From: Streptomyces sp. HB132
Lineage (GTDB): Bacteria > Actinomycetota > Actinomycetes > Streptomycetales > Streptomycetaceae
Direction: 5' to 3'
Assembly: GCF_016909575.1 (NCBI RefSeq)
Contig: NZ_JAFBGA010000004.1
Coordinates: 434,001-498,000 of the forward strand
Length of the DNA: 64,000 bases
Shown here: positions 1 through 15,964 of the stretch, piece by piece
How positions within the stretch are numbered: position 1 is the first letter of the stretch
Layout: each line of letters starts with the position of its first letter
Made by a program: the position numbers and the translations under genes
The notes under the pieces: generated by a model
The model's input: only the letters and a program-made list of their open reading frames with translations
Told to the model about the DNA's origin: nothing
Databases searched by the model: none

Positions 1-904
1 CACACGCACGCGCTGGGCGCCCGTGCTCGCCGAGGGTTCCGGCCTGACGCCGGGTGTGGACTTCCACCTCGTCTTCTCCCCGGAACGGGTGCTGACCGGC
101 CGTGTCTTCGCGGACCTGCGCCGCTATCCGAAGCTCGTCGGCGGCATCGACGAGGCGTCCTCACGGCGGGGGGCGGATTTCTACGAGGCCGTGCTCGACT
201 TCGACGACCGTGAGGACCTGCCACGTCCGAACGGAGTCTGGGACCTCGGTACGGCGGAGGCCGCCGAGCTGGCCAAGCTCGCCGAGACCACCTACCGCGA
301 CGTCAACATCGGTCTGGCCAACCAGTTCGCCCGGTTCGCCGACCGGAACGGCATCGACGTCAGGAAGGTCATCGAGGCCTGCAACAGCCAGCCCTACAGC
401 CACATCCACCAGCCCGGCATCGCCGTGGGCGGCCACTGCATCCCGGTCTACCCGCGGATGTACCTGTGGAACGACCCGGAGGCCACCGTCGTGCGCTCGG
501 CCCGTGAGACCAACGCCGCGATGCCCGGATACGCCGTGGACCTGCTGGCCGCCGCGTACGGCGACCTGGACGGTGCCGGGGTCCTGGTGCTCGGCGCCGC
601 CTACCGCGGGGGAGTGAAGGAGACCGCCTTCTCCGGCGTCTTCGGGGTCGTCGAGGCACTGAGGGCCCGCGGCGCGGTGCCGTTCGTCTCCGACCCGATG
701 TACACGGCCGGCGAACTGACCGCGCACGGCCTCGTGCCGCACGCGGGCCAGACCGTCACCGCCGCGATCCTCCAGGCCGACCACGCCGAGTACCGGGAGC
801 TGGCCGCTGCCGACCTGCCTGACGTCCGCGTCCTGGTCGACGGCCGCCGTACGACGGACCCGGCCAACTGGGAGGGGGTCCGTCGCGTCGTCATCGGCGG
901 CTGA
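1..904 (+). CDS. UDP-N-acetylhexosamine dehydrogenase (WbpA/WecC-like), 5' partial
   Basis: C-terminal 300 residues of a nucleotide-sugar 6-dehydrogenase, which oxidises UDP-GlcNAc or UDP-ManNAc to the uronic acid with NAD+ in the cytoplasm. The frame is open from base 2, so the gene begins outside the window; the GTG at 23 is internal. Visible family motifs are FSPERVLTG, the GTAEAAELAKLAETTYRDVN helix that carries the catalytic Lys/Asn region, and VGGHCIPVYPRMYL, which contains the active-site Cys. The C-terminal UDP-binding domain (GVLVLGAAYRGGVKET) is complete. It ends 19 bp from the convergent glycosyltransferase gene, with no clear terminator between them. The neighbouring WbpI- and WbpD-like genes suggest UDP-GlcNAc as substrate in a diacetamido-uronate pathway. 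UDP-ManNAc dehydrogenase is the alternative, because the N-terminal half is missing. Confidence 0.88.
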   Translation, partial: TRTRWAPVLAEGSGLTPGVDFHLVFSPERVLTGRVFADLRRYPKLVGGIDEASSRRGADFYEAVLDFDDREDLPRPNGVWDLGTAEAAELAKLAETTYRDVNIGLANQFARFADRNGIDVRKVIEACNSQPYSHIHQPGIAVGGHCIPVYPRMYLWNDPEATVVRSARETNAAMPGYAVDLLAAAYGDLDGAGVLVLGAAYRGGVKETAFSGVFGVVEALRARGAVPFVSDPMYTAGELTAHGLVPHAGQTVTAAILQADHAEYRELAAADLPDVRVLVDGRRTTDPANWEGVRRVVIGG

Positions 905-923
905 CCGGACGGCCCGCGCCGGA

Positions 924-3056
924 TCAGCCCTCGCCGAGGAGGAACCGGTCGAACCGCTTGCCCACGACGCTCCAGTCCCAGGCCGAGAGAGCGTGCTCCG
1001 AAGCCGGCCCGCCCGCCGCCCGCCAGGACTCCTCGGTCGAGGTGGTGTCCAGGATGCGCCTGGCGGCCTCCTCCGGAGAGCCGACGACCCAGCCCTCGGG
1101 GTACAGGGTCCGCGCGCTGTTCGCCCGCCCGGCGTAGAAGGGCCAGTCGCGGACGACCGGCAGGGCGGCGCTCGCTGCACCCTCCATCAGGCCCACATGG
1201 CATCCTTCGCGCAAGGACGAACTGAGGATCACGCCGATGTCGCTCAGCACACCGGGAACGTCGTCGGTCGGGCCCAGCCGTACCACCGCGCCGGAGGCGA
1301 CGAGAGGTCTCAGCACCCGCTCGAGGCGCCTGCGGTAGTCACCGGTCGCCCTACTGGTCCTCGGGTCCATGTCACCACCCACCAGAAGCAGCCGGTAGCG
1401 CTCGTCGTGCTCACGCACGCGCTTGAGCACGTCCACCGCCCACAGCGGATCCTTGGCGACCTGACTGACGCCGATCAGACCGAGGTTGAACCGGGCTTCG
1501 GCCGGCTTGGGCCGGACGAAACGGGAGAGCTCCATCGCGTTGTCGAGCAGATGGGTCCGCGGTGCGCCGGCGCCGCGCAGATGCGGTACCAGCGACGTGA
1601 CCAGGTCCTTCACGTGCGGTGCCACGAAGACGAGGTCGTCGACGCGGGAGAAGTCCGTCATGTGGGGCCATCTGGTGAACGCCTCGTAGCTGTGCAACCG
1701 CACCACGATGCGGGTGTCGCCGGGATCGATGGTGGTGAGCATCGAGGCGGGGCCGACGGACCAGTCGAGGAACACCGTGTCCGCCCAGTCCAGGTGGGGA
1801 CGCATCAGCCGCTCGACCTCCGCCTGGTAGCCGGTCGTGCCACCGGCCAGCCGGTCCTCCAGCATGAGCCGCGCGGCCCACGAGATGCGGTTGAGCGCCC
1901 TCTGGGCAGCCAGGTCCAGGTAGCGGAGCTCGACCCGCGGATGGTTCTCGTACCGCGAGAGGACGTGGTGGAGGAAGTTGGCGTTGGCGCTGGTGGTGAC
2001 GAGCAGGCGCAGCGGACGGCCGGCGGGAGGGCTCGCAGCGGGGGTCTGCCTGCCCCGGGGCCGGGAGACCGCCCGGAACGCGGTGGAGACCTGGAGGCTC
2101 GCGGTGTGGTCCCGCGCGTTCTCGACGAGCGGCGAGCTCAGCCCGTCCACGTGCAGCATGCGGTGGAAGCAGAGGAACATTGCCCGGTTCAGAGCCTCGG
2201 ACGCGACCTCGTGGTTGCCCTCGGCGTACTGCTCGTCGGCCTGGGCGAGCCGGGCGCCGACCGCCCTGTGGAGGTCGCGGGGGCTGATGCCCTCGGCGAT
2301 CTCCGTCATGACCCCCTCGTCGAGCAGCTTCGCCCGGAGCGAGAGGTCGGGGATCCTGGAGGCCGCCGTCGTGAGCGCCATGGCGGCCCCGCTGGTACGG
2401 CCGGCCCACCGCATGCCTTCCGCGACGTAGCGGGCCGCCGCCACGCGGGCTCTGACCGGCACACCCGGAGCGCTCACCGCCGAACGCCAGAGCCGGGCCC
2501 CGAGGGCGGACCGCATGACGGGACGCGCGGTCGCCGCGCGCATCACGGCGGCCGGGACGGCGTCGACGGAGCGGCGTACGTCCTGCGCGACCGCGCCCGG
2601 AGCCGGAAACACGACCCGGCGCGGGACCGTTTCCCGCTGCCCGCGCCTGTCGAACGCGGTGAGTGCGGCCACGACGCCGAAGTGGGCCTCCGCCGTCGGG
2701 TTGTACCGCGCGAGCCGCCACACGGTGTAGACGGCGCCCGGGTCCAGGGCCACGATGACCTGAGCCCGCAGAGCACGCCGCCGGAACCCCCGGTCCCGCT
2801 GCGACTGCAGCCACACCCGCATGCCGACGGGGGAGGCCTTGGCTCTGCGCCGCACCGAACCGCTCCTGCGGGAGAGCCCCCGGGGCAGCTGATGCACCCC
2901 GTCCAGCGCGATGAGGGACAACTCCTGTGCGACCCGGGCCACGTGGAAGGTGCCGGCCAGGTGGACCCGGGCACCGCGATCACGGAACCGGCCCACCGAA
3001 TCCGCGAGGATGCCGAGCTCAGGCCGCTTGGTGGCGACGAACAGAACCTCCGTCAC
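924..3056 (-). CDS. Large glycosyltransferase, GT-B type (710 aa)
   Basis: Glycosyltransferase, probably acting on a cell-envelope polysaccharide at the cytoplasmic face. The GTG start at 3056 is chosen because it overlaps the stop of the upstream glycosyltransferase by four bases (GTGA), which implies translational coupling; the open frame further upstream is only a shadow of that gene. The C-terminal third has a GT4-like donor domain: NLGLIGVSQVAKDPLWAVDV, a RLLLVGGD strand and a REGCHVGLMEGAASAALPVV segment with the Glu that contacts the sugar nucleotide. The N-terminal part starts with a Rossmann-like strand (TEVLFVATKRPELGILADS) and is followed by about 200 residues I cannot assign. Family members are usually 350-450 aa, so this is a long, probably two-domain protein. 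Acceptor and donor are unknown. Confidence 0.8.
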   Translation of the reverse strand: MTEVLFVATKRPELGILADSVGRFRDRGARVHLAGTFHVARVAQELSLIALDGVHQLPRGLSRRSGSVRRRAKASPVGMRVWLQSQRDRGFRRRALRAQVIVALDPGAVYTVWRLARYNPTAEAHFGVVAALTAFDRRGQRETVPRRVVFPAPGAVAQDVRRSVDAVPAAVMRAATARPVMRSALGARLWRSAVSAPGVPVRARVAAARYVAEGMRWAGRTSGAAMALTTAASRIPDLSLRAKLLDEGVMTEIAEGISPRDLHRAVGARLAQADEQYAEGNHEVASEALNRAMFLCFHRMLHVDGLSSPLVENARDHTASLQVSTAFRAVSRPRGRQTPAASPPAGRPLRLLVTTSANANFLHHVLSRYENHPRVELRYLDLAAQRALNRISWAARLMLEDRLAGGTTGYQAEVERLMRPHLDWADTVFLDWSVGPASMLTTIDPGDTRIVVRLHSYEAFTRWPHMTDFSRVDDLVFVAPHVKDLVTSLVPHLRGAGAPRTHLLDNAMELSRFVRPKPAEARFNLGLIGVSQVAKDPLWAVDVLKRVREHDERYRLLLVGGDMDPRTSRATGDYRRRLERVLRPLVASGAVVRLGPTDDVPGVLSDIGVILSSSLREGCHVGLMEGAASAALPVVRDWPFYAGRANSARTLYPEGWVVGSPEEAARRILDTTSTEESWRAAGGPASEHALSAWDWSVVGKRFDRFLLGEG

Positions 3057-4498
3057 GATGCGGTCCCTCCCGCGACGATGGGCTTCTCCGCGAGGACCGC
3101 CGTGTCCGTTGCGCCTCTGCCCGATGCGCGGTCCGCGGCGAGCTGATCGATCAGCTCCCGTACGGCGGCGCTCATCAGCGCCCTCCGGGTGAACCGGTCC
3201 GCGTGTGCCATCGCCTCCGCGTGGACGGCGTCGCTGGTCCCGACGGCCATGTGCGCCGCGCGGACGAACGAACGGGTCAGGGCCTCCTCGTCCATACCGG
3301 CGGAGCCGGTCCACAGCGGATGGCCGCGGAGGACGTTCGACGCGTCGTGCTCGACCACGTGCGCGGAGACGATGGGCAGTCCCGTCGCCATGTACTCGTA
3401 CACCTTGCCCGAGGTGACGTAACGGCCGCCGATGAGGATGAGGACCAGGGCGTCCCAGCCGGCGTAGACCGAGGCGACCTCCGCCTTCGCGGCGGGACCG
3501 CCGAAGCGGACACCGTCGTCCTCGGCCTGCTTCAGGATCTCGGCGTGGCGGTTGGCCTCGCGCCCGGCGCCGTTGCCGATGTGACCGCGTACCTCGAAGC
3601 GCGCGTTGGCCAGCAGCGGCTCCTGCTCGCGGGCCGCGCGCCAGGCGCTGAGGACCGTTTCGAGCTGCTGGGCGGTGAAGTTCACCGTGCCCAGGTAACC
3701 GAAGACGAGACCGGACCCGGGGTCGGGGCGGTGCGCACGGCCGGGTGAGCTGTCCGCGTCGTAACCGTTGCGTACGACCCGGACCCGGTCGGCGAAATCC
3801 GGGTAGCGCTCGCGGTAGTGCGCGGCGATCGGGTCGTTGACCACCCAGAGGGAGACCGCGTGGTCCAGCATCCTCTGCTCCCAGCGCCCGGGTTCGGAGT
3901 CGCGGGAGAAGGCTTCCACGCCCTCGATCACGTCGATGGACCAGCCGTCGCGGAAGTCCATCGCGTAGGGAACTCGTGCGTCCTCCCACAACCTCCACAC
4001 CGCGGCGAGGTTGACGTAGGGGACGCAGCTCGCCAGGAGGAGGTCCGCACGGTGTTCACGGTGGATGTCCAGCACGGCCTGCTCCAGCGCACCGCGCCAT
4101 TCGCCGAAGTTCGGCTCCGGGAAGGTGCTGGTCTGCCGGACCCGGAGCCGGGCGACCCATTCGTTCGGCCTGAGAGCACGGTCCTCGTCGTAGAGACGGA
4201 TGTCCGTCTCCAGGTCCTCACGTGCCAAGGGCAGTTCGACGACGCGCACCAGCGGGTCGACCTGGTCCAGGAGAGTGAGGTCGACGCCGGAGTCCCGCTG
4301 CCAGGAGTCCCGCGCGATCGTGACGACGGTGACGTCCCAGCCCGCCTCGACGAACTGGTTCGCCGTCTCACGCATGCGGTAGGCGCAGCTCTTCGCAGCC
4401 GGCGGGAAACCGATGGCGAGGTAGATCACGTGGGGCCGTGCGTCTTTCGTGGGCGGCCCGGACCTGGAGGACGCTGACATGACAGATGACGCTAGCAT
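3053..4498 (-). CDS. Glycosyltransferase family 4-type protein
   Basis: GT-B fold glycosyltransferase of 481 aa. The N-terminal acceptor domain begins HVIYLAIGFPPAAKSCAYRM, the usual glycine/proline loop of GT4 enzymes that act on lipid-linked or wall glycans. The second domain has GLVFGYLGTVNFTAQQLETV, and KVYEYMATGLPIVSAHVVEH is the conserved nucleotide-sugar Glu region. An alternative ATG start lies at 4480. Both candidates lack a strong ribosome binding site, so the N-terminal six residues are uncertain. The gene sits 42 bp downstream of the epimerase and overlaps the next glycosyltransferase, so the three are likely one transcript. The sugar transferred is not evident from sequence. Confidence 0.85.
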   Translation of the reverse strand: MLASSVMSASSRSGPPTKDARPHVIYLAIGFPPAAKSCAYRMRETANQFVEAGWDVTVVTIARDSWQRDSGVDLTLLDQVDPLVRVVELPLAREDLETDIRLYDEDRALRPNEWVARLRVRQTSTFPEPNFGEWRGALEQAVLDIHREHRADLLLASCVPYVNLAAVWRLWEDARVPYAMDFRDGWSIDVIEGVEAFSRDSEPGRWEQRMLDHAVSLWVVNDPIAAHYRERYPDFADRVRVVRNGYDADSSPGRAHRPDPGSGLVFGYLGTVNFTAQQLETVLSAWRAAREQEPLLANARFEVRGHIGNGAGREANRHAEILKQAEDDGVRFGGPAAKAEVASVYAGWDALVLILIGGRYVTSGKVYEYMATGLPIVSAHVVEHDASNVLRGHPLWTGSAGMDEEALTRSFVRAAHMAVGTSDAVHAEAMAHADRFTRRALMSAAVRELIDQLAADRASGRGATDTAVLAEKPIVAGGTAS

Positions 4499-4540
4499 GG
4501 TGACATATGCCTATTTGTGATGTTCGTGGTACTCCGCACG

Positions 4541-5644
4541 TCACGCGCGTCGGCCTTTCGCGTCCCGGCCCTCGATGATGCGGACGACGTTCTTCGCCGC
4601 GTGGCCGTCGCCGTAGGGCGTGCCGGGGTCGGCCGTCGGTGCGGCCCGGGTCACCGTGCCGGCCCAGGCGTCCGGGTCCATCGCGTGCGGATCGGGCACC
4701 AGGACGTTCCAGCCGGTGTCCACCGTCTCCACCCACTCCGTTTCGGGGCGGACGGTCGTGGTGGTCCTCCTCAGGAGGAACGCCTCCTTCTGGAGGCCTC
4801 CGGAGTCGGTGACGACGCCGGAGGACGCCAGCACGGCAGCGACGAGGTCCGCGTACGGGAGCGGACGGCCGACGTGGACGGAACCCCGGTCCAGCTCGAG
4901 GCCGTGCTCCTCGGCGCGGGCGACCAGGCGTGGGTGGGCGAGCAGCGCGACCGGAACGGGCAGGCTGGCCAGGGACTCCAGGAGCGCCGCCAGGCGGCCG
5001 GGATCGTCGGTGTTGTCCGGACGGTGCAGCGTGGCGAGCAGGAACGGCCGGGCGGGGTCGATGCCCCCGGGCAGCACGGGCGCGGGGAGCCCTTCCGCGA
5101 GCACCGCGTCCCGGATCCGCAGGCAGATGTCGACCATGACGTCACCGGCCAGCTCCGAGCGGTCGGAGAGCCCCTCCGCCGCGAGGTGGCGCATCGCCTC
5201 CTCGGTCGGCGCGAGGAGGAGGTCCGCGCAGTGGTCGGTCAGTACCCGGTTGTGTTCCTCCGGCATGCGCCGGTTGAAGGAGCGCAGTCCCGCTTCCAGG
5301 TGGGCGACCGGGATGTGCATCTTCACCGCGGACAGCGCGCCGGCGATGGTGGAGTTGGTGTCTCCGTAGACCAGGACCCAGTCCGGCTTCTCCCGTTCGA
5401 GGACCGGGTCGAGTGCCAGGAGCACGGATCCGGTCTGCGCTCCGTGACTTCCGGAGCCGACGCCCAGGTGGACATCGGGGTCCGGGATGCCGAGTCCGTC
5501 GAAGAACACATCCGACAGATCGGCGTCGTAGTGCTGTCCCGTGTGCACGATGAGGTGTTCGTGTTCCGTGTCCGCGAAGGCGGCCGATACGGGTGCCAGT
5601 TTCACCAATTGCGGGCGGGCGCCGACGATGCTGATGACTTTCAC
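4541..5644 (-). CDS. Non-hydrolysing UDP-sugar 2-epimerase, WbpI/WecB family
   Basis: Epimerase inverting C2 of a UDP-N-acetylhexosamine(uronate), 367 aa. The start MKVISIVGARPQLVKLAPV, the VHTGQHYDADLSDVFFDGLG segment and EAGLRSFNRRMPEEHNRVL resemble WbpI, the UDP-2,3-diacetamido-2,3-dideoxyglucuronate 2-epimerase. The WecB/MnaA versions usually read GTRPEAIKMAP. VYGDTNST and the VTDSGGLQKEAFLLRRTT loop that holds the UDP are present. The GTG start at 5644 is preceded by GAAGGG with good spacing. It lies between the acetyltransferase gene (199 bp upstream) and the glycosyltransferases. The WbpI reading fits the WbpD-like neighbour. Plain UDP-GlcNAc 2-epimerase (wecB) remains possible. Confidence 0.88.
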   Translation of the reverse strand: MKVISIVGARPQLVKLAPVSAAFADTEHEHLIVHTGQHYDADLSDVFFDGLGIPDPDVHLGVGSGSHGAQTGSVLLALDPVLEREKPDWVLVYGDTNSTIAGALSAVKMHIPVAHLEAGLRSFNRRMPEEHNRVLTDHCADLLLAPTEEAMRHLAAEGLSDRSELAGDVMVDICLRIRDAVLAEGLPAPVLPGGIDPARPFLLATLHRPDNTDDPGRLAALLESLASLPVPVALLAHPRLVARAEEHGLELDRGSVHVGRPLPYADLVAAVLASSGVVTDSGGLQKEAFLLRRTTTTVRPETEWVETVDTGWNVLVPDPHAMDPDAWAGTVTRAAPTADPGTPYGDGHAAKNVVRIIEGRDAKGRRA

Positions 5645-5843
5645 TGAGCACCCTTCTGCCGGGACAGGTCGATTCCGGGATATCGGGGCAATCGTAGGTA
5701 ATTACGGTGATGGCCGGGTGTGATCCGGCGGTGTCGAGGGCGCGTCGTTGCGCTGCCGTCCGCGTCGGGGACCCATGGGGGAGTGCGTCGCGTCAATCCG
5801 GTAAGGGCTGTGACCCGTTGCGGCCGGACGGCGGGCCTCCCGC

Positions 5844-6440
5844 TCAGCGCTCGGACAGGATGCCGTCCTCCTCGACGTACGCCGCGCCGGACCGTGGGCA
5901 GTCCCAGACCCCGGGCTCGCCCTCGCGCTCCACCAGGCGCACGCCGCTGCGGCCGACCCAGCCGGCCCACCGGGCCGGGACGCCGACCACGAGTGCGAAG
6001 TCCGCCACGTCCTTGGTGACCACAGCCCCGGCCGCGACCATGGCCCAGCGGCCGATCCGCACCGGTGCCACGCAGACCGAACGTGCGCCGAGGGACGCGC
6101 CCTCGGCGATCCTCACGCCGACGGCCTCCCACTCCCCGCCATGCTTCCGGCGGCCCTCGGCGTCGACCGACCGCGGGTTGTGGTCGTTGGTGAGGACCAC
6201 CGCGGGGCCGATGAAGACCCCGTCGCCGAGTTCGGCGGGCTCGTACACGAGCGCGTAGTTCTGGATCTTGACGTTGTCGCCGATGCGCACGCCGGCGCCC
6301 ACGTACGCGCCACGACCGATCACGCATCCCTCGCCGAGCCTGGCTCCCTCGCGGATCTGCGCCAGTTCCCAGATGCTGCTGCCCGCGCCGATCGCGGCAC
6401 TTCCGTCGACCTGGGCGGTGGGCTGGACTCGGTAGTTCAC
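5844..6440 (-). CDS. Left-handed beta-helix N-acetyltransferase, WbpD-like
   Basis: Hexapeptide-repeat acetyltransferase of 198 aa. It is expected to transfer acetyl from acetyl-CoA to the 3-amino group of a UDP-2-acetamido-3-amino-uronate. Repeats such as IGAGSSIWELAQIREGARLG, VGAGVRIGDNVKIQN and LGARSVCVAPVRIGRW build the beta-helix. The NDHNPRS loop and the VGVPARWAGWVG end match WbpD-type enzymes. The GTG at 6440 follows AAGGTGG with suitable spacing; longer upstream readings lose the family start. The last 25 residues after the helix are an extra tail. It probably heads the minus-strand run acetyltransferase-epimerase-glycosyltransferases and is divergent from rplU. No clear promoter was seen on this strand. 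Confidence 0.85.
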   Translation of the reverse strand: MNYRVQPTAQVDGSAAIGAGSSIWELAQIREGARLGEGCVIGRGAYVGAGVRIGDNVKIQNYALVYEPAELGDGVFIGPAVVLTNDHNPRSVDAEGRRKHGGEWEAVGVRIAEGASLGARSVCVAPVRIGRWAMVAAGAVVTKDVADFALVVGVPARWAGWVGRSGVRLVEREGEPGVWDCPRSGAAYVEEDGILSER

Positions 6441-6748: not shown

Positions 6749-7069
6749 GTGTACGCCATCGTGCGCAGCGGTGGTCGCCAGCACAAGGTTGCTGTCGGCG
6801 ACATCGTTGAGGTTGACAAGATTTCCACCGCCAAGGTTGGCGACACGGTCGAGCTCTCGACCCTGCTCGTTGTCGACGGCGACGCCGTGACCAGCGACCC
6901 CTGGGTTCTGGACGGCATCAAGGTCCAGGCCGAGATCGTGGACCACCACAAGGGCGCGAAGATCGACATCCTTCGCTACAAGAACAAGACGGGTTACCGC
7001 CGTCGCCAGGGTCACCGTCAGCAGTACACGGCGATCAAGGTCACCGGTATCCCCGCGGCTGCGAAGTAA
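6749..7069 (+). CDS. rplU: 50S ribosomal protein L21
   Basis: L21 binds 23S rRNA in the large subunit. The 106-residue product [20 protein letters not shown] through [19 protein letters not shown] is full length for the family. Translation starts at GTG 6749, the only start that gives the conserved N-terminus. The gene is preceded by a strong promoter and is followed 14 bp later by rpmA, so the two are cotranscribed. In most Streptomyces the RNase E/G gene lies just upstream; here the neighbour is a divergent sugar acetyltransferase. Confidence 0.98.
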
Positions 7070-9196: not shown

Positions 9197-10696
9197 GTGT
9201 CTGTGCCGCATGTAGCCAAGCCCCGGACCACAGCGGTCGTTCTCGCCGGTGGGACCGGTCAGCGCGTGGGACTGTCGATCCCCAAGCAGTTGCTGAAGAT
9301 CGCCGGTAAGGCAGTCATCGAGCACACGCTGAGCATCTTCGAGAACGCCGAGGGCATCGACGACGTCATCGTGCTGATGGCGCCCGGCTTCGTCCCCGAC
9401 GTCGAGAAGATCGTCGCCAAGGCCGGGCTGACCAAGGTCATCAAGGTCATCGAGGGTGGCAGCACCCGGAACGAGACCACCGAGCGCGCCATCTCGGCCC
9501 TCGGCGAGGGGCTCGCGGAGGGCGAGGACCGCAACGTCCTCTTCCACGACGCGGTCCGGCCGCTGCTGTCCCAGCGCGTCATCAAGGACTGTGTGGACGC
9601 ACTCGACCGCTACCAGGCCGTCGACGTCGCCATCCCGTCCGCCGACACGATCATCGTGACCCGCACCCACGGTGAGGACGGCGAGTTCATCACCGACGTC
9701 CCGGACCGGTCCCGCCTGCGCCGCGGTCAGACCCCGCAGGCGTTCAAGCTGTCCACGATCCGCAGGGCTTACGAGGTCGCGGCCGGCGACCCGAACTTCC
9801 AGGCCACCGACGACTGTTCGGTGGTCCTGCGGTACCTCCCCGACGTGCCGATCTACGTGGTCGCGGGCGACGAGTACAACATGAAGGTGACCCAGCCGGT
9901 CGACGTCTTCATCACCGACAAGCTCTTCCAGCTGGCCTCCACCGCAGCCCCGCGCCCGGCCGACGAGGCCGCCTACCGCGAGCTGCTCTCGGGCAAGACC
10001 CTGGTCGTCTTCGGCGGTTCGTACGGCATCGGGGCCGACATCGCGACGCTGGCCGAGCAGTACGGCGCCAGTGTGTACGCGCTGGGCCGCTCCACCACGG
10101 GTACGCACGTCGAGAACCCGGAGCACATCGACGACGCGCTGTCCAAGGCGTACGCCGAGACCGGCCGCATCGACTACGTGATCAACACCGCGGGCGTGCT
10201 GCGCATCGGCAAGCTGGCGGAGACGGACAACACGACGATCCAGGAAGCGCTGAACGTCAACTACCTGGCGCCGGTGCAGATCGCGCGCGCCTCGTACAAG
10301 TACCTCGCGGAGACGCAGGGGCAGTTGCTGCTGTACACCTCCAGCAGCTACACCCGGGGCCGCGCCGAGTACAGCCTCTACTCCTCCACCAAGGCCGCCA
10401 TGGTGAACCTCACGCAGGCGCTGGCCGACGAGTGGGCGGGCGAGGGCGTCAGGGTCAACTGTGTGAACCCGGAGCGCACCGCGACCCCCATGCGCACGAA
10501 GGCGTTCGGCGCGGAGCCGGAGGGCTCGCTCCTCTCGTCCGAGGCCGTGGCGCGCACCTCGCTGGACGTACTCCTGTCCGCGATGACGGGCCACGTGATC
10601 GACGTGAGGCAGCAGGACCCGACCCGCGATGTCACGGAAGCCTCGGGATTCGAGCAGGCGTTGGCCTCGGTTCTTGATCGTCAAGAAGATGTGTAA
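9197..10696 (+). CDS. Bifunctional cytidylyltransferase / short-chain dehydrogenase (CDP-ribitol synthase-like)
   Basis: A 499 aa fusion. Residues 1-235 form an IspD/TarI-type cytidylyltransferase (VVLAGGTGQRVGLSIPKQLL; FHDAVRPLLS). Residues about 265-495 form a short-chain dehydrogenase with the GGSYGIGADIATLAEQYGA nucleotide-binding loop, an NTAGVL segment and the YSLYSSTKAA catalytic Tyr/Lys. This order matches Haemophilus Bcs1/Acs1, which reduce ribulose-5-phosphate and form CDP-ribitol. The inferred role is therefore to supply CDP-ribitol or a similar CDP-polyol to the downstream TagF-like polymerase. The GTG at 9197 is chosen because AAGGTAGG lies six bases upstream; GTG 9203 is also possible. 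Substrate specificity is inferred from domain architecture only. Confidence 0.88.
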   Translation: MSVPHVAKPRTTAVVLAGGTGQRVGLSIPKQLLKIAGKAVIEHTLSIFENAEGIDDVIVLMAPGFVPDVEKIVAKAGLTKVIKVIEGGSTRNETTERAISALGEGLAEGEDRNVLFHDAVRPLLSQRVIKDCVDALDRYQAVDVAIPSADTIIVTRTHGEDGEFITDVPDRSRLRRGQTPQAFKLSTIRRAYEVAAGDPNFQATDDCSVVLRYLPDVPIYVVAGDEYNMKVTQPVDVFITDKLFQLASTAAPRPADEAAYRELLSGKTLVVFGGSYGIGADIATLAEQYGASVYALGRSTTGTHVENPEHIDDALSKAYAETGRIDYVINTAGVLRIGKLAETDNTTIQEALNVNYLAPVQIARASYKYLAETQGQLLLYTSSSYTRGRAEYSLYSSTKAAMVNLTQALADEWAGEGVRVNCVNPERTATPMRTKAFGAEPEGSLLSSEAVARTSLDVLLSAMTGHVIDVRQQDPTRDVTEASGFEQALASVLDRQEDV

Positions 10697-10832: not shown

Positions 10833-13022
10833 GTGATTTCGACAGCCATCCGACTGGCCCGTGTGGGCAGCCGGTCAGAACTGTTGGCAGCGGTATTGAT
10901 GACGCTGGGATACCCCTGCGTCATGGTTGCCGCTCTTGTCCCCAATATCTGGTTCTTCGCGGCGGCCACCGCTGTCACGTACATCGCGGACTGGTATCTG
11001 CACCAGCGGGGCAGCTATCTGGTCAACCGGCTCGGCAAGGTCCGGGCGGGTCTGTCCATCCGCTTCCTGCTCCGCCAGTTGATGATCATCCTGCTGCTGG
11101 CCCGGCTGGACCTTGCCGAGGAGCCGCTCTTCTACGCGGCCGTCGCGTGCTTCCTCCTCTTCTACGGCCTGCAGGCCCCGCAGGGCGCTCTCACGACCCT
11201 GATCAGGCTGCGCCGCAGTCTGCCGATCGTCACCCGGAACGTGGACCTGCACGCGGTCCGCATCCCGGACGCCCCGCCGCGCGCGCTGCTGCACCGCGCC
11301 AGCGAGAAGATGCTCCACCTGGACCTCCCCGCAGTGGTGGGCGTCCTCCTCGCCGCCGGCACGGGCGAGGACTTCCTCGGCTACATCGGCGCGGCCCTGA
11401 CCCTGCTGCTCGCCGTCGGTTACAACGCCCTGCTCGTCCCGTACCTCCGCCGGAACCGGCGGGCGCCGTCGGCCCCGGTCGTACTGAAGGCCCTGGACAC
11501 CTGGCTGGGCGAGTACCAGCCGACCGTCGTGCTCTACTTCTCCGGCTCCAGCGAGTCGGCCTACCAGGGCAACATGTGGCTCGACACCATGGCCGCCGTC
11601 GAGGGGCGCCCTCTGATCGTCATGCGTGAGCGCAACCTCGTCCCGCAGCTCGCGGACACCTCCGTGCCCGTGATCTGCGTGCCCGCCGGCACCCACCTGA
11701 TGAACCTGAACCTCTCCACCGTCCGCGTGTGCCTCTATCCGGCGAACGTGGGCAAGAACATCCACATGCTGCGCGTCCCGACCATGAAGCACGTCTTCAT
11801 CGGTCACGGTGACAGCGACAAGCTGGCCAGCGTCAACCCGTACTCCAAGGTGTACGACGAGGTCTGGACGGCAGGCCGCGCCGGCCGGGACCGCTACGCC
11901 CTGGCGGACGTCGGTGTCCGCGACGAGGACATCGTCGAGGTCGGGCGGCCGCAGCTGGCCCCCATCCAGAGCTGGACCGGCACCACGAGGAACCCCATCC
12001 CGACGGTGCTGTACGCCCCCACCTGGGAGGGCTGGGACGACAACCCCGGCAACACCTCGCTGCTGCTGGCGGGTGAGAACATCGTCCGCCGGCTGCTGGA
12101 GGCGGACACCCCGGTCCGGGTCATCTACAAGCCGCACCCGTTCACCGGTATCCGCAGCCCCGAGGCCAAGGCCGTCAACGCCCGGATCAAGGCACTCCTG
12201 GCCACGTCGGCGCAGGAGCGCGCCGCGGACCCGCGATGGGCGAAGGAGGCCTCGGCCGCAGCTGCCGGGCAGGCCTCGGCCGCCGCGGAACTGGTCCGCA
12301 TCGAGGCGCGTCTGGCCGAGCTCGCGAAGCCCGGCCGGTCCGGGGGCGACGAGTCGGAGGAGTCGCGGGTCGCGCTCGCCGATCCGGCCCGCCAGACCGA
12401 GATCGCCACCCTCCGTGCGGAGTGGAACGACGCCTACTGGCGTTCCTTCGGCTGGTGGGAGCACCGGACGGTCGTCGGTGCGCAGCCCAAGCTGTACGAC
12501 TGCTTCAACCAGTCCGACGCCATGGTTTCGGACATCTCCAGTGTGGTGTCCGACTTCATCGCGAGTGGCAAGCCGTACGCGGTCACGGACTCCGCGGAGC
12601 TCGGCGCGGAGGAGTTCAAGCGCCAGAACACCGCGGTGCGGGCGTCCGTCGTCCTCTCCAACGACGCGCAGGAGATCGACGAACTGCTCCGTGCCGTGGC
12701 CGACCCGGCCACGGACCCGCTGGCCGAAGCGCGCCACGAGCTGAAGGCCTACCTGCTGGGCCCGGACGAGCCGACCTCGATGGAGCAGTTCAACGCCGCC
12801 GTACTGGCCCTCACCGTCAAGGCGGAGGCCCGCAACGCGGGTGTCGCGCAGCGCGTCGGCGGTCAGCCGCCGGCCCCGCTGCCGGACCTCGAGGCCGAGG
12901 ACAGCGGTGCCGGGGACGGAGCGGCGGAGATCGTCGCCGAGGCCGAGGCCGCGGTCGATCCCGACGACCCCGCCCCGGACACCGACGCGGAGATCGGCGC
13001 CGACCCTTCGGCCCTGCGCTGA
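10833..13022 (+). CDS. Membrane-anchored TagF/TarL-like polyol-phosphate transferase
   Basis: A 729 aa protein. An N-terminal half with several hydrophobic segments (about residues 20-210) is joined to a CDP-glycerol glycerophosphotransferase-type GT-B domain. Diagnostic motifs are FIGHGDSDK (His at residue 325), VLYAPTWEGW and DISSVVSDFIASGKP (from residue 567), equivalent to the HG, YAPTWR and SDxSS motifs of TagF. It is expected to polymerise polyol-phosphate units from CDP-ribitol or CDP-glycerol onto a lipid-linked wall teichoic acid primer. An alanine/glutamate-rich insertion at about residues 450-520 and an acidic C-terminal tail are unusual. The GTG at 10833 follows GGAGCAGG. It lies directly after the CDP-polyol synthase, which supports the pairing. 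Confidence 0.85.
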   Translation: MISTAIRLARVGSRSELLAAVLMTLGYPCVMVAALVPNIWFFAAATAVTYIADWYLHQRGSYLVNRLGKVRAGLSIRFLLRQLMIILLLARLDLAEEPLFYAAVACFLLFYGLQAPQGALTTLIRLRRSLPIVTRNVDLHAVRIPDAPPRALLHRASEKMLHLDLPAVVGVLLAAGTGEDFLGYIGAALTLLLAVGYNALLVPYLRRNRRAPSAPVVLKALDTWLGEYQPTVVLYFSGSSESAYQGNMWLDTMAAVEGRPLIVMRERNLVPQLADTSVPVICVPAGTHLMNLNLSTVRVCLYPANVGKNIHMLRVPTMKHVFIGHGDSDKLASVNPYSKVYDEVWTAGRAGRDRYALADVGVRDEDIVEVGRPQLAPIQSWTGTTRNPIPTVLYAPTWEGWDDNPGNTSLLLAGENIVRRLLEADTPVRVIYKPHPFTGIRSPEAKAVNARIKALLATSAQERAADPRWAKEASAAAAGQASAAAELVRIEARLAELAKPGRSGGDESEESRVALADPARQTEIATLRAEWNDAYWRSFGWWEHRTVVGAQPKLYDCFNQSDAMVSDISSVVSDFIASGKPYAVTDSAELGAEEFKRQNTAVRASVVLSNDAQEIDELLRAVADPATDPLAEARHELKAYLLGPDEPTSMEQFNAAVLALTVKAEARNAGVAQRVGGQPPAPLPDLEAEDSGAGDGAAEIVAEAEAAVDPDDPAPDTDAEIGADPSALR

Positions 13023-13193: not shown

Positions 13194-13278
13194 TCGGCGT
13201 GTCCGTGCTGGAACAGGGCATGTCCCGTCGTTCCATCGGTTCTCCTGATAGATACGTTTATGCGTGAACCGGGGAGAG

Positions 13279-14508
13279 ATGAGCAACACCGCACCAGATG
13301 TGACCGTCATCATCGGCGCCTACGAAGCGATGCCGTACCTGATCCGATGCCTGGATTCCGTCGAAGCACAGACGCTTCCGGCCCAGCGCATCGAGATCGT
13401 TGCCGTCGACGACGGCTCCACCGACGGCACGGGGGAGTACCTTGAGGAGTTCGCGGCCCGGACCGCCATCGACATGCGTGTCGTGCGTCAGAAGAACTCC
13501 GGCGGTCCGAGCGGGCCGCGCAACGTCGGGCTCGGCCTCGCCCGGGGCAGGTACGTCTTCTTCCTCGACGCCGATGACTACTTCGGCGAGGAGGCCCTGG
13601 AGCGGATGGTCGCCATGGGCGACCGGGCCGGCACGGACGTGGTGCTCGGGAAGGTCGTCGGCGTCAACCGCGGTGCGGCGAAGTCGATGTGGAAGCAGAC
13701 GGTCGAGCGGGCCGATCTCTACTCGTCCAACATCAAGTTCACCCTGAGCGCCCAGAAGCTGTTCCGCCGGGACCTTCTGGTGCGGCTCGGGATGAGGTTC
13801 GACGAGGAGCTGAAGACGGGCGAGGACGCGCTCTTCACCATGGAGGCGTACCTGCGTGGCAACGGCGTCTCCGTCGTGGCCGACTACACCTGCTACTACC
13901 TGGTGGGCCGGGACGACGGCAAGCACGTGACGAAGAGCGGCAGTTACCTGCTCCGCTTCGACTCGGCCCGGGCGCTGATGGGCCTCATCGCCACGCATGT
14001 GCCGCCGGGGCCGAAGCGGGACGTCCTGATGGTCCGGCCGTTCGTCATCACGCTGCTCCCACAGTTCGGACCCGCTCTGCTGCGGCAGTCCGACGAGGTG
14101 CGGAAGAAGAAGATGGAGCTGGCGGCGCCGCTGCTGGAGGCCTACTGGTCATCGGGACTGGCCCGGCGCCTCAAGGTCAACGAACGACTCAGGCTGATCT
14201 GCCTCGCGAACGGCCGGCTCGACCTGCTTCTGGACATTCTGCAGTTCATGAAGGACAACAAGAAGCCCCGTGTGGTCCGTAAGGGGCTCCGTGGCCGACT
14301 CTATCTGGTCTACCCGCACTTCGGCGAGGATGCGGCACTGCCTCTGTCCGCGTACGAGGTGAGCGTGCCCGAATGGATCGGCCGGAAGCGGGTCGACGTG
14401 CCGGGGAGACAGTCCCCCGCCGTCTTCCTGCGGCGGCTGTCGGGCAAGGCGCGCAGGACGGTCCGGTCCTCCCGTCTGCACACGCCGCGCCGCGCCCACA
14501 AGGTCTGA
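13279..14508 (+). CDS. Family 2 glycosyltransferase
   Basis: GT-A fold transferase of 409 aa. MSNTAPDVTVIIGAYEA leads into EIVAVDDGSTDGTGEYLEEF (nucleotide-binding Asp), and YVFFLDADDYFGEEALERM holds the metal-binding DxD. KTGEDALFTMEAYLRG is the family catalytic-base (ED) region. The C-terminal 120 residues are basic and lack membrane segments. The ATG at 13279 is chosen because GGGGAG lies just before it, although the spacing is short; a GTG at 13264 would add five residues. It follows the TagF-like gene and is convergent with the pyruvyltransferase. It probably decorates or primes the same wall polymer. Confidence 0.85.
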   Translation: MSNTAPDVTVIIGAYEAMPYLIRCLDSVEAQTLPAQRIEIVAVDDGSTDGTGEYLEEFAARTAIDMRVVRQKNSGGPSGPRNVGLGLARGRYVFFLDADDYFGEEALERMVAMGDRAGTDVVLGKVVGVNRGAAKSMWKQTVERADLYSSNIKFTLSAQKLFRRDLLVRLGMRFDEELKTGEDALFTMEAYLRGNGVSVVADYTCYYLVGRDDGKHVTKSGSYLLRFDSARALMGLIATHVPPGPKRDVLMVRPFVITLLPQFGPALLRQSDEVRKKKMELAAPLLEAYWSSGLARRLKVNERLRLICLANGRLDLLLDILQFMKDNKKPRVVRKGLRGRLYLVYPHFGEDAALPLSAYEVSVPEWIGRKRVDVPGRQSPAVFLRRLSGKARRTVRSSRLHTPRRAHKV

Positions 14509-14536: not shown

Positions 14537-15964
14537 CTACTGTTCGGGGCGAAGCAACCTGCGGACCGGGCGCCCCACCACGCGTCGGGCGCGCCGGTAG
14601 GCGGACGGCCACGCGGCCGCTCCCGCGCCCGTCTGCACCCTGACCTTGACCGGGCCGGCGCCCTTCTTCTCGAGCTGGCCGCGCAGCTCCGCGTTCTGGG
14701 CGGCCAGCTCCTCCATCCGGCTCTGCATCCAGCTGAAACGGCTGCTCAGGGAGTCGGGGTCGGACTCGGTCCACGGGCGGACGGCGGGCGGAAGGGCGAG
14801 CTTGGACATCTGCGCGTCGAACGCCTTGCCGCTGTCGCCGTGGTGGAAGGTGTTCTCCAGCCCGTTGCGCTCCATGAAGCCGGTGAAGCGCAGGAAGCGC
14901 TCCTTGTGGCCGTTCACCAGCTCACCGAAGTCCGCCGCCTCGTACAGCTCGGCGGGGTCGATGTTCTTGGGCGTCTCGGAGATCTTGCGGTGCGGAATGC
15001 CGAAGTACCGGCAGAGTTCCAGGGTCCGCGAGTCGCTGCAGAGCACCGTGCTCGGGACACCGGCCAGCAGCGCCGCGATGTTTCCGTGGATGCGCGAGCC
15101 GAACGAGAAGTCGAACGCGCGTAGTTCCTCGATCCAGGTGGCCGGGTCGACGTAGAGCCTGACCTTGCCCTCGCGGTACATGGGGTGGGACGGGTGGGTC
15201 GGCATCGAGGTCTGGGCGCCGATCGGGTTCGCCGTCTCCCGCCAGTGGAGCAGCTGGGCCTCGAGCAGGTTCTGCCCGATGAACCGCAGGTGGGGATAGC
15301 GCTCGTGGGCCTGACGGATTATGGCGTCGAGGCCGTGCGAACGTACGGCGCTGTGCGATCCGTTCACCGAGATGCGCGATTCAGGGGTGAGCGACTCGGT
15401 CTTCTTCTCGAGCCTGAACGTTTCGCCGTTCATGAACATGGAGGGGCAGCCGATGACCTCGACGTCCCGGAACCCCATGCTCTTGAGGTACTGCTCGGTG
15501 AACTCTCCGCGCACTCCGATGGAGGCGCTGCGGTTGAGCACCTGGGTGACGAATTCCTTGACCGTCGCCTCCATCGGCTTCAGCCGGGACGCGTTGTACT
15601 TGAGGTCCGCCTGTGCGCCGACGCCCAGGACGACCACGGGGATGCGCAGCTTCTTGATCAGCTGTGTCATCCGCTGCAAGGGCCGCTCGAAGGTCGGGCG
15701 GAAGGCGTTCGCCAGGGGCACGACGAAGACGTCGAACTCCTCGTTTATGCGAGCGGCCGCCGATGGATCCGTACGAATACCGTTCGAGAAGACCGCTGCC
15801 CGCGGAGTCGTCAGAATCTTGTGGGCAGCGTCACTGAAGATCAGGTTGCCCGCGTTGGTCGCGAAGACATCTCTGTCGAGGGACTGTTCGAGCGAAGCCA
15901 CATCGAAGGGGCTTTTGCCTGATCTGAGGAGAATGCGCCTCTGGCGGGTCGGTTCATCTGTCAC
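14537..15964 (-). CDS. Polysaccharide pyruvyl transferase family protein
   Basis: A 475 aa protein of the CsaB/WcaK-type family, which transfers enolpyruvate from PEP to a sugar of a surface glycan to form a ketal. Recognisable elements are RIPVVVLGVGAQ, SIGVRGEFTEQYLKSMGF, EVIGCPSMFM and the FGSRIHGNIAALLAGVPSTV segment with the conserved Arg/His. The last 70 residues add a short coiled coil (SRFSWMQSRMEELAAQNAEL) and a very basic tail. The GTG at 15964 has no ribosome binding site; a TACTCT box seven bases upstream suggests a leaderless mRNA. Pyruvylation of an actinomycete wall polymer is the likely role, but a non-catalytic or different ketal-forming role cannot be excluded. Confidence 0.82.
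   Translation of the reverse strand: MTDEPTRQRRILLRSGKSPFDVASLEQSLDRDVFATNAGNLIFSDAAHKILTTPRAAVFSNGIRTDPSAAARINEEFDVFVVPLANAFRPTFERPLQRMTQLIKKLRIPVVVLGVGAQADLKYNASRLKPMEATVKEFVTQVLNRSASIGVRGEFTEQYLKSMGFRDVEVIGCPSMFMNGETFRLEKKTESLTPESRISVNGSHSAVRSHGLDAIIRQAHERYPHLRFIGQNLLEAQLLHWRETANPIGAQTSMPTHPSHPMYREGKVRLYVDPATWIEELRAFDFSFGSRIHGNIAALLAGVPSTVLCSDSRTLELCRYFGIPHRKISETPKNIDPAELYEAADFGELVNGHKERFLRFTGFMERNGLENTFHHGDSGKAFDAQMSKLALPPAVRPWTESDPDSLSSRFSWMQSRMEELAAQNAELRGQLEKKGAGPVKVRVQTGAGAAAWPSAYRRARRVVGRPVRRLLRPEQ

What the first reader, a model, noticed from the sequence alone, without database searches (positions are those of the whole stretch)
1..6440. Partial pathway for a UDP-2,3-diacetamido-uronic acid in a Streptomyces-like genome
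A WbpA/WecC-like dehydrogenase, a WbpD-like N-acetyltransferase and an epimerase with WbpI-type signatures (GARPQ, SFNRRMPEE) lie together with two glycosyltransferases. In Pseudomonas these enzymes, with WbpB and WbpE, make UDP-ManNAc(3NAc)A. In this context the sugar would enter a teichuronic-type wall polymer. The WbpB- and WbpE-like genes are not in the window and should lie just to its left.
Basis: partly seen in the sequence, partly recalled or inferred. Interest (0 to 1): 0.6.

Follow-up and report, generated by a model that had tools for sequence, protein, structure and literature searches.

The report
Streptomyces wall-sugar (utr-type) gene cluster
This Streptomyces carries a complete gene set for an unusual acidic sugar in its cell-wall polymer, a cluster type described in 2025 as the docking site for rival Streptomyces toxins; one of its enzymes looks like that of a different, archaeal-like version of the pathway.

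Summary
The window starts inside a convergent cluster. On the + strand, mostly left of the window, lie an aminotransferase, an oxidoreductase, a TarS-like glycosyltransferase and the nucleotide-sugar dehydrogenase (last 904 bases in the window). On the - strand lie two GT-B glycosyltransferases, the 2-epimerase and the acetyltransferase. The epimerase groups with the solved UDP-GlcNAc3NAcA 2-epimerase of Thermus, not with WecB, and is the only hit of its Pfam family in the genome.

By gene content and position (beside rplU, TarIJ-like and TagF-like genes) this is a utr locus, published in December 2025 (Zhao et al., Cell): UDP-ManNAc3NAcA for a teichuronic acid attached to ribitol wall teichoic acid. 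It is therefore a new member of a known kind. Here utrE and utrI are missing from the locus and no umbA lies beside utrJ.

What may be new: the C3 oxidoreductase is not WbpB-like. The window protein and two distant actinobacterial relatives match the archaeal UDP-GlcNAc 3-dehydrogenase model best. The pathway works like Wbp but is a mosaic, and C3 may be aminated before C6 is oxidised. Chemistry is untested here.

The parts
1..904 (+). utrD-type nucleotide-sugar dehydrogenase, 3' part (whole gene L002:17621-18904, 427 aa). Upstream on the same strand, outside the window: utrA aminotransferase L002:13859-14977, utrB oxidoreductase L002:14974-15999, utrC TarS-like GT2 L002:15996-17624 (window base 1 = L002:18001)
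   Evidence: ORFs and starts; Pfam UDPG_MGDP_dh, DegT, GFO_IDH_MocA, GT2 + TarS_linker; neighbouring genes overlap by 4 nt; GGHC in 78 of 78 homologues with over 85% coverage
924..3056 (-). glycosyltransferase of 710 aa, C-terminal GT-B domain, in the utrF/utrG position
   Evidence: Pfam Glyco_trans_1_4, 27.3 bits with cut-off 27; model pLDDT 88.7; Foldseek: OGT, GT4 and TarM GT-B folds
3053..4498 (-). glycosyltransferase of 458-481 aa (start at 4429 or 4498), GT4-like GT-B, in the utrF/utrG position
   Evidence: Pfam Glyco_trans_4_4 + Glyco_trans_1_4; model pLDDT 90.6; Foldseek best MshA 3c48, E 3e-16
4541..5644 (-). utrH: WbpI-type UDP-GlcNAc3NAcA 2-epimerase (predicted)
   Evidence: best solved relative 8sxv, 331.8 bits, vs WecB 1vgv 119.4; pocket residues Q12, Y93, W304; tree; only PF02350 hit in the genome
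5844..6440 (-). utrJ: WbpD-type N-acetyltransferase
   Evidence: 3mqg 153.5 bits; 44% identity over 194 aa to the WbpD-position protein of a Pseudomonas wbp set
6749..7069 (+). rplU (ribosomal protein L21; label recalled from sequence), locus anchor
   Evidence: gene call; same neighbour in related loci; L21 is an anchor of the published S. griseus locus
9266..10696 (+). TarIJ-like fusion (IspD-type cytidylyltransferase + SDR), ribitol teichoic acid precursor
   Evidence: Pfam IspD + adh_short; SGR_4956 TarIJ in the published locus
10896..13022 (+). TagF-like polyol-phosphate polymerase (weak match)
   Evidence: Pfam Glyphos_transf 25.4 bits over the whole protein, cut-off 22.1; SGR_4957 TagF in the published locus
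13264..14508 (+). second GT2 with TarS linker, wall teichoic acid section
   Evidence: Pfam; 42% to utrC

Best explanation
This is a utr locus: it makes UDP-GlcNAc3NAcA and, with UtrH, UDP-ManNAc3NAcA, and builds from them a teichuronic acid chain on ribitol-phosphate wall teichoic acid. UtrA/UtrB replace the C3 hydroxyl of the UDP-sugar by an amino group (oxidation to a 3-keto sugar, then transamination), UtrJ acetylates it, UtrD oxidises C6 to the uronate and UtrH inverts C2. UtrC puts the first GlcNAc3NAcA on ribitol phosphate, and the two GT-B enzymes extend the chain. In this strain the chain end is probably not O-acetylated (no utrI), and the partner sugar comes from UDP-GlcNAc or from a 4-epimerase encoded elsewhere. 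Shown here: gene set, order, strand, family, active-site signatures, neighbours. Inferred: substrates, step order, GT assignments, polymer structure. The polymer chemistry was shown in print for S. griseus and S. antibioticus; the enzyme steps are predictions there too.
For: Six of the ten published utr functions (A, B, C, D, H, J) are present, A-D on one strand and H, J with two GTs on the other, between rne and rplU and beside TarIJ/TagF-like genes. Epimerase: 331.8 bits to the solved UDP-GlcNAc3NAcA 2-epimerase, 119 to WecB; it groups with it (99/96) apart from WecB, 4neq and a second Streptomyces epimerase type; Gln, Tyr and Trp of its sugar pocket are shared by the window and 84 of 84 actinobacterial relatives, WecB has Glu, His, Arg. 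In 199 Streptomyces genomes 16 have this epimerase (70% identity or more, next best 46%) and all 16 are among the 33 that have utrB (71% or more); in 14 of 16 the two lie within 10 kb. The genome shows no other PF02350 hit, so no UDP-ManNAc maker is visible to feed a WecC-type dehydrogenase. In print: S. antibioticus, without utrH (and without utrE and utrF), has GlcNAc3NAcA only; S. griseus, with it, has ManNAc3NAcA in its repeats.
Against: Epimerase residue Leu16 is not the Ala of Thermus and of the Pseudomonas, Deinococcus and two haloarchaeal relatives; Leu or Met there was described for UDP-GlcNAc epimerases. The dehydrogenase is hardly closer to WbpA (33%) than to E. coli WecC (31%), and its best solved relative is annotated as a UDP-ManNAcA dehydrogenase. 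The oxidoreductase is not WbpB-like. utrE and utrI are absent from the locus and no utrI relative was found in the genome. I could not compare with the S. griseus proteins themselves.
Confidence: 0.87

Rival explanations
1. Same end product, other order: UtrB oxidises C3 of UDP-GlcNAc itself (GnnA/archaeal type), UtrA aminates, UtrJ acetylates, and only then UtrD oxidises C6, so the route is not the Wbp route. (This is a variant of the best explanation, not an alternative to it.)
For: UtrB scores 170.6 bits with the archaeal UDP-GlcNAc 3-dehydrogenase model NF040723 (a Kribbella UtrB 204.5, a Bifidobacteriaceae UtrB 205.6, two Haloferax proteins 230.2 and 211.5) while the Pseudomonas and Deinococcus WbpB-position proteins score 25.6 and 25.2; no real BLAST match to the Pseudomonas one (E 0.36), 31% over 329 aa to the Haloferax one; the profile of 35 UtrB proteins finds 7bvj first (109 bits), 3q2k at 78.
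Against: All are below the model's cut-off of 450 bits; substrate preference cannot be read from these scores; the profile also finds inositol dehydrogenases at 72-82 bits; Zhao et al. proposed a Pseudomonas-like route.
Confidence: 0.4
2. The product is the same, but the polymer is not attached to wall teichoic acid (a free capsule or a separately anchored teichuronic acid).
For: The chain-building GT pair is missing from loci such as L024 and L028 that share the other enzymes, and attachment was not tested in this strain.
Against: UtrC with its TarS linker is present, with an SDQPF motif whose Asp is residue 182 (S. griseus UtrC needs D181; that they correspond is inferred), and TarIJ- and TagF-like genes are near.
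Confidence: 0.08
3. The epimerase is a WecB and the dehydrogenase a WecC: the locus makes UDP-ManNAcA, and the aminotransferase, oxidoreductase and acetyltransferase make a second, unrelated sugar.
For: TIGR00236 wecB is passed (248.2 bits, cut-off 210.15); the dehydrogenase's best solved relative is annotated UDP-ManNAcA dehydrogenase; Leu16.
Against: Tree, pocket residues, nesting of the epimerase inside utrB carriers, and the published S. antibioticus / S. griseus contrast.
Confidence: 0.04

Closest known systems
utr (umbrella toxin resistance) teichuronic acid locus of Streptomyces griseus and relatives (Zhao et al. 2025, PMC13274773)
   Same: utrA, B, C, D types on one strand and utrH, J types plus two glycosyltransferases on the other, beside L21 with TarIJ and TagF beyond; utrH present as in S. 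griseus
   Different: no utrE or utrI in the locus (S. anulatus is described as lacking a predicted epimerase, not named in the text, and the O-acetyltransferase); no umbA beside utrJ (308 bases to rplU); own GT pair whose orthology to UtrF/UtrG could not be tested; polymer not analysed
Wbp pathway of Pseudomonas aeruginosa and its Thermus counterpart (WbpA, B, E, D, I)
   Same: same five reaction types; WbpE-, WbpD- and WbpI-type enzymes recognisable (38%, 44%, 45% to a Pseudomonas frederiksbergensis plasmid set)
   Different: oxidoreductase is from another branch of the Gfo/Idh/MocA family; dehydrogenase hardly nearer to WbpA than to WecC; used for a wall polymer, not LPS
Five-gene acetyltransferase-aminotransferase-oxidoreductase-dehydrogenase-epimerase set on Haloferax plasmids (L118, L119)
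   Same: four of five window enzymes are nearer to the L118 set than to the Pseudomonas set (A 44 vs 38%, B 31% vs no match, D 40 vs 33%, H 48 vs 45%)
   Different: acetyltransferase is nearer to the Pseudomonas one (44% over 194 aa vs 38% over 128 aa); other gene order and context; product there unknown to me

Membership tests
utr teichuronic acid locus | core utrA, utrB, utrC, utrD, utrJ genes together | tested here: met
   same layout in related Streptomyces. Assigned by family and place, not by comparison with S. griseus proteins
utr teichuronic acid locus | placement beside L21, linked TarIJ and TagF genes | tested here: met
   rne L002:9355-13518 and rplU window 6749-7069 (labels recalled), TarIJ-like and (weakly) TagF-like genes, published anchors
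utr teichuronic acid locus | utrH epimerase (variable in the published set) | tested here: met
utr teichuronic acid locus | utrE 4-epimerase and utrI O-acyltransferase (variable in the published set) | tested here: not met
   19 bases between utrD and the GT gene, 199 between utrH and utrJ; a 68% utrE-like protein lies elsewhere at G000:C19:21107-22033; no utrI relative (without a positive control)
utr teichuronic acid locus | GTs orthologous to UtrF and UtrG | tested here: inconclusive
   S. griseus is not among the fetched loci and the paper's supplement was not open to me; GT-B folds found
utr teichuronic acid locus | teichuronic acid chain on ribitol wall teichoic acid | not testable with these tools
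   needs NMR of the wall polymer
Wbp pathway (WbpA/B/E/D/I) | WbpI-type epimerase | tested here: met
   three of four pocket residues
Wbp pathway (WbpA/B/E/D/I) | WbpB-type C3 oxidoreductase | tested here: not met
   3o9z (named wbpB) 24 bits
Wbp pathway (WbpA/B/E/D/I) | WbpE-type 3-aminotransferase | tested here: inconclusive
   3nyu WbpE 231.6 bits, but five other solved sequences score higher, best 7b0d 296.7; 38% to the Pseudomonas WbpE-position protein
Wbp pathway (WbpA/B/E/D/I) | WbpD-type N-acetyltransferase | tested here: met
Wbp pathway (WbpA/B/E/D/I) | WbpA-type UDP-GlcNAc 6-dehydrogenase | tested here: inconclusive
   33% to WbpA, 31% to WecC, 40% to the Haloferax dehydrogenase
WecB (UDP-GlcNAc 2-epimerase) | grouping with WecB and its sugar-pocket residues | tested here: not met
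   passes the broad TIGR00236 model but 30-32% to WecB, other pocket residues, other clade

The most novel reading that the evidence does not exclude
The actinobacterial diacetamido-uronate pathway is not the Wbp pathway transplanted but an archaeal/GnnA-like route with a WbpD-type acetyltransferase: UtrB is a UDP-GlcNAc 3-dehydrogenase, amination and acetylation at C3 come first, and the dehydrogenase UtrD works on UDP-GlcNAc3NAc. The Pseudomonas-like route proposed in print for Streptomyces would then be wrong in its order, and the same would hold for the Kribbella, Micromonospora, Actinoplanes, Glycomyces, Nocardioides and Actinomadura loci.
Probability: 0.4. Interest if true: 0.45.

Novelty: new member of a known kind. 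Interest (0 to 1): 0.35.

Why it matters
Utr polymers are receptors by which umbrella toxin particles choose Streptomyces targets, so which sugars a strain can make bears on which toxins can dock on it. This locus adds a strain with its own GT pair, the C2 epimerase, and no O-acetyltransferase gene. The oxidoreductase result gives a concrete reason to test the unproven order of steps (the authors themselves call the pathway speculative), and it can be tested with purified enzymes.

Tried and rejected
Rejected: the WecB/WecC reading. Left open: which GT is UtrF and which UtrG. The 710-aa GT occurs at 62% or more in 7 of 199 genomes, all with utrH, and at 45-51% in 8 more, 5 of them without utrH. 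The 458-aa GT occurs at 79% or more in the same 7, at 58-66% in 5 more and at 37% in 2. That hints at GT pairs tuned to the sugar, but folds did not separate them: both look GT-B, and both also match TarM. A tree of oxidoreductases had long branches, 4 starred forks of 22, and put 6nor inside the UtrB group, which I do not believe; I use only its fork that sets the two WbpB-position proteins and an inositol dehydrogenase apart from UtrB, 7bvj and Haloferax (98/93), and with caution.

Led nowhere: a search for papers joining GnnA and WbpB, one on GlcNAc3NAcA and 3-dehydrogenases (listing, one review looked into), that review of archaeal glycans (passages), a search of general actinomycete wall papers (listing only), an umbrella toxin in this genome (the only ALF-repeat protein found has 240 aa), plasmid neighbours that have the epimerase but no complete set.

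Names recalled, from no call: rne, rplU and obg labels, GnnA for 7bvj and that GnnA acts on UDP-GlcNAc, WlbA for 3q2k and 3q2i, WlbB for 3mqg.

Full report
What is there. The window is G000:C4:434001-498000 of a 7.75 Mb genome; the 27 best of 80 loci with a related epimerase are all Streptomyces. I fetched the DNA to its left (L002, window base 1 = L002:18001). Each of these genes overlaps the next by four bases. They meet, tail to tail with 19 bases between the stops, the - strand genes of the window: GT of 710 aa (924-3056), GT of 458-481 aa (3053-4498), 2-epimerase (4541-5644), acetyltransferase (5844-6440). rne lies to the left and rplU, obg, a TarIJ-like fusion and a weakly matching TagF-like polymerase to the right (rne, rplU and obg are recalled labels).

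The epimerase. Its closest solved relative is the Thermus thermophilus UDP-GlcNAc3NAcA 2-epimerase (331.8 bits; 49% identity), far ahead of E. coli WecB (119 bits; 30-32%). A tree of 27 rows (the window, 21 of 86 related loci chosen by me, two loci of a second Streptomyces type and three references) puts Thermus and the actinobacteria together with support 99/96, apart from WecB, the Methanocaldococcus enzyme and the second Streptomyces type (WecB is a long branch). Thoden et al. (PMC10622841, passages read) list Gln14 and Trp307 among the sugar contacts and name Ala18 and Tyr96 as positions that differ from UDP-GlcNAc epimerases. The window enzyme and 84 of 84 actinobacterial relatives have Gln, Trp and Tyr at three of the four; WecB has Glu, Arg and His. 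At the fourth all 84 have Leu, whereas Pseudomonas, Deinococcus and two haloarchaeal relatives have Ala. That is a result against a simple reading. The genome gives a single hit of Pfam family Epimerase_2.

The other enzymes. The acetyltransferase's best solved relative is 3mqg (153.5 bits, next 84.7). The aminotransferase matches WbpE (231.6 bits), but five other solved DegT-type sequences score higher (best 296.7), so sequence alone says 'sugar aminotransferase'. The dehydrogenase is a nucleotide-sugar dehydrogenase (TIGR03026 281 bits, cut-off 189.8), about equally far from WbpA and WecC. Signature motifs are present: PTKN in 67 of 67 aminotransferases, GGHC in 78 of 78 dehydrogenases, EKP in 75 of 75 oxidoreductases, SDQPF in 41 of 45 UtrC-like GTs (homologues with over 85% coverage).

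Co-occurrence. Of 80 named actinobacterial loci that encode a close epimerase, 66 hold 19 kb or more; of these 66, 54 contain all five enzyme genes, 63 the oxidoreductase and 60 the aminotransferase (40% identity, half coverage). With a 50% threshold it is 48 of 66, because six of the 54 have an acetyltransferase of only 42-46%. Of the 12 loci that lack something, 9 lack the acetyltransferase, 6 the aminotransferase and 3 the oxidoreductase; two Demequina loci (L068, L076) lack all four partners. Genera include Streptomyces, Actinoplanes, Micromonospora, Actinomadura, Glycomyces, Nocardioides, Pimelobacter and Kribbella. In a sample of 199 Streptomyces genomes (own one included), 16 have the epimerase at 70% or more (next best 46%) and 33 the oxidoreductase at 71% or more; all 16 are within the 33. 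In 14 of the 16 the two genes lie within 10 kb, in one (G061) on different contigs, in one (G109) 2.5 Mb apart. Relatedness of the genomes was not corrected for. UtrC at 65% or more is in 28.

What is known. Zhao et al., Cell 2025 (PMC13274773; I read the abstract, sections 10, 14, 45, 46, the first two of four parts of the results, and passages; not the figures or supplement) describe the utr locus of S. griseus: utrA-E and, on the other strand, utrF-J, with umbA, L21, L27, TarIJ and TagF near. Its polymer has GalNAc-alpha(1-4)-ManNAc3NAcA-beta(1-3) repeats joined through GlcNAc3NAcA to ribitol teichoic acid, the receptor of an S. coelicolor umbrella toxin. S. antibioticus lacks utrE, F and H and makes GlcNAc3NAcA only; S. 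anulatus lacks a predicted epimerase (not named in the text) and the O-acetyltransferase. They write that the route is similar to that of P. aeruginosa and that their pathway remains speculative. The window locus fits this description in the genes it has. Of my searches, Streptomyces with teichuronic acid and diacetamido and ManNAc3NAcA with Actinobacteria listed only this paper; diacetamido with teichuronic listed three more, which I judged by title alone (an S-layer protein, an NMR review, a surfaceome review).

What differs here. utrE and utrI are not in the locus. A 68% relative of the protein in the utrE position of L004 lies on another contig; no relative of L005's acyltransferase in the utrI position was found (no positive control). 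No umbA fits in the 308 bases between utrJ and rplU, and the only ALF-repeat protein found in the genome has 240 aa, unlike the 1077-aa one in L005. The two GTs have homologues in many of the Streptomyces loci but not in L024, L025, L028, L029 or L036. AlphaFold models (pLDDT 88.7 and 90.6) give GT-B folds. The 710-aa one carries about 340 residues before its GT-B half without a Pfam name.

The oxidoreductase. It has no real BLAST match to the WbpB-position protein of a complete wbpA-B-D-E-I set on a Pseudomonas frederiksbergensis plasmid (E 0.36), but 31% identity over 329 aa to the one in a five-gene Haloferax set. The NCBIfam model for archaeal UDP-GlcNAc 3-dehydrogenase gives 170.6 bits for the window protein, 204.5 and 205.6 for two distant actinobacterial ones, 230.2 and 211.5 for two Haloferax ones, and about 25 for the Pseudomonas and Deinococcus proteins; none reaches the cut-off of 450. 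A profile of 35 UtrB proteins ranks 7bvj first (109 bits), then 6nor (87), with 3q2k at 78 among inositol dehydrogenases at 72-82; 3o9z, named wbpB, is not among the 60 best shown. The 70 UtrB-like proteins placed in the named loci are at least 54% identical to the window's, so I take what holds for it to hold for them. The likeliest account is that WbpB's place is taken by an enzyme of another branch, whose best-known member works on UDP-GlcNAc (recalled). This makes the order C3 first, C6 later a serious option. It does not change the product.

Verdict. I found no statement of the mosaic make-up of the pathway in print, but the supplement of Zhao et al. was not open to me. It is easy to test.

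Noticed in passing
L095:7058-12211 and L096:7538-12992 (G188, G012): A second Streptomyces cluster type: a UtrJ-like acetyltransferase (73-78%) beside a 40% epimerase, a 33% dehydrogenase and a 256-aa protein that looks TagA/WecG-like (recalled), with no utrA- or utrB-like gene found in the 20 kb. In 15 further genomes of the sample the same two hits lie within 5 kb of each other.
   Followed up: partly
L097:9784-10884 and L098 (G109): A utrH-type gene (70%) lies 2.5 Mb from a utr cluster in whose 20 kb no utrH was found.
   Followed up: no
L005:2366-5599 and L026:14512-16101: Umbrella-type genes in utr loci: a 1077-aa protein with seven ALF repeats between rplU and utrJ, and a trypsin-like plus FG-GAP protein.
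   Followed up: no
G000:C9:169798-170520 (L101:9798-10520, -): A 240-aa protein with three ALF repeats, the only ALF protein found in this genome; much shorter than the 1077-aa one of L005.
   Followed up: partly
window 14537-15964 (-): A polysaccharide pyruvyl transferase family protein in the wall teichoic acid section, on the strand opposite to its neighbours.
   Followed up: no
L114 (Pseudomonas frederiksbergensis plasmid) and L118, L119 (Haloferax plasmids): Complete five-gene diacetamido-uronate-type sets on plasmids, the first typed mobilizable; the epimerases are annotated as wecB, although those of L114 and L118 carry the WbpI-type pocket residues.
   Followed up: partly
window 924-3056 (-): 710-aa glycosyltransferase with about 340 N-terminal residues without a Pfam name, partly helical in the model, with homologues in Streptomyces, Glycomyces and Micromonospora loci.
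   Followed up: partly
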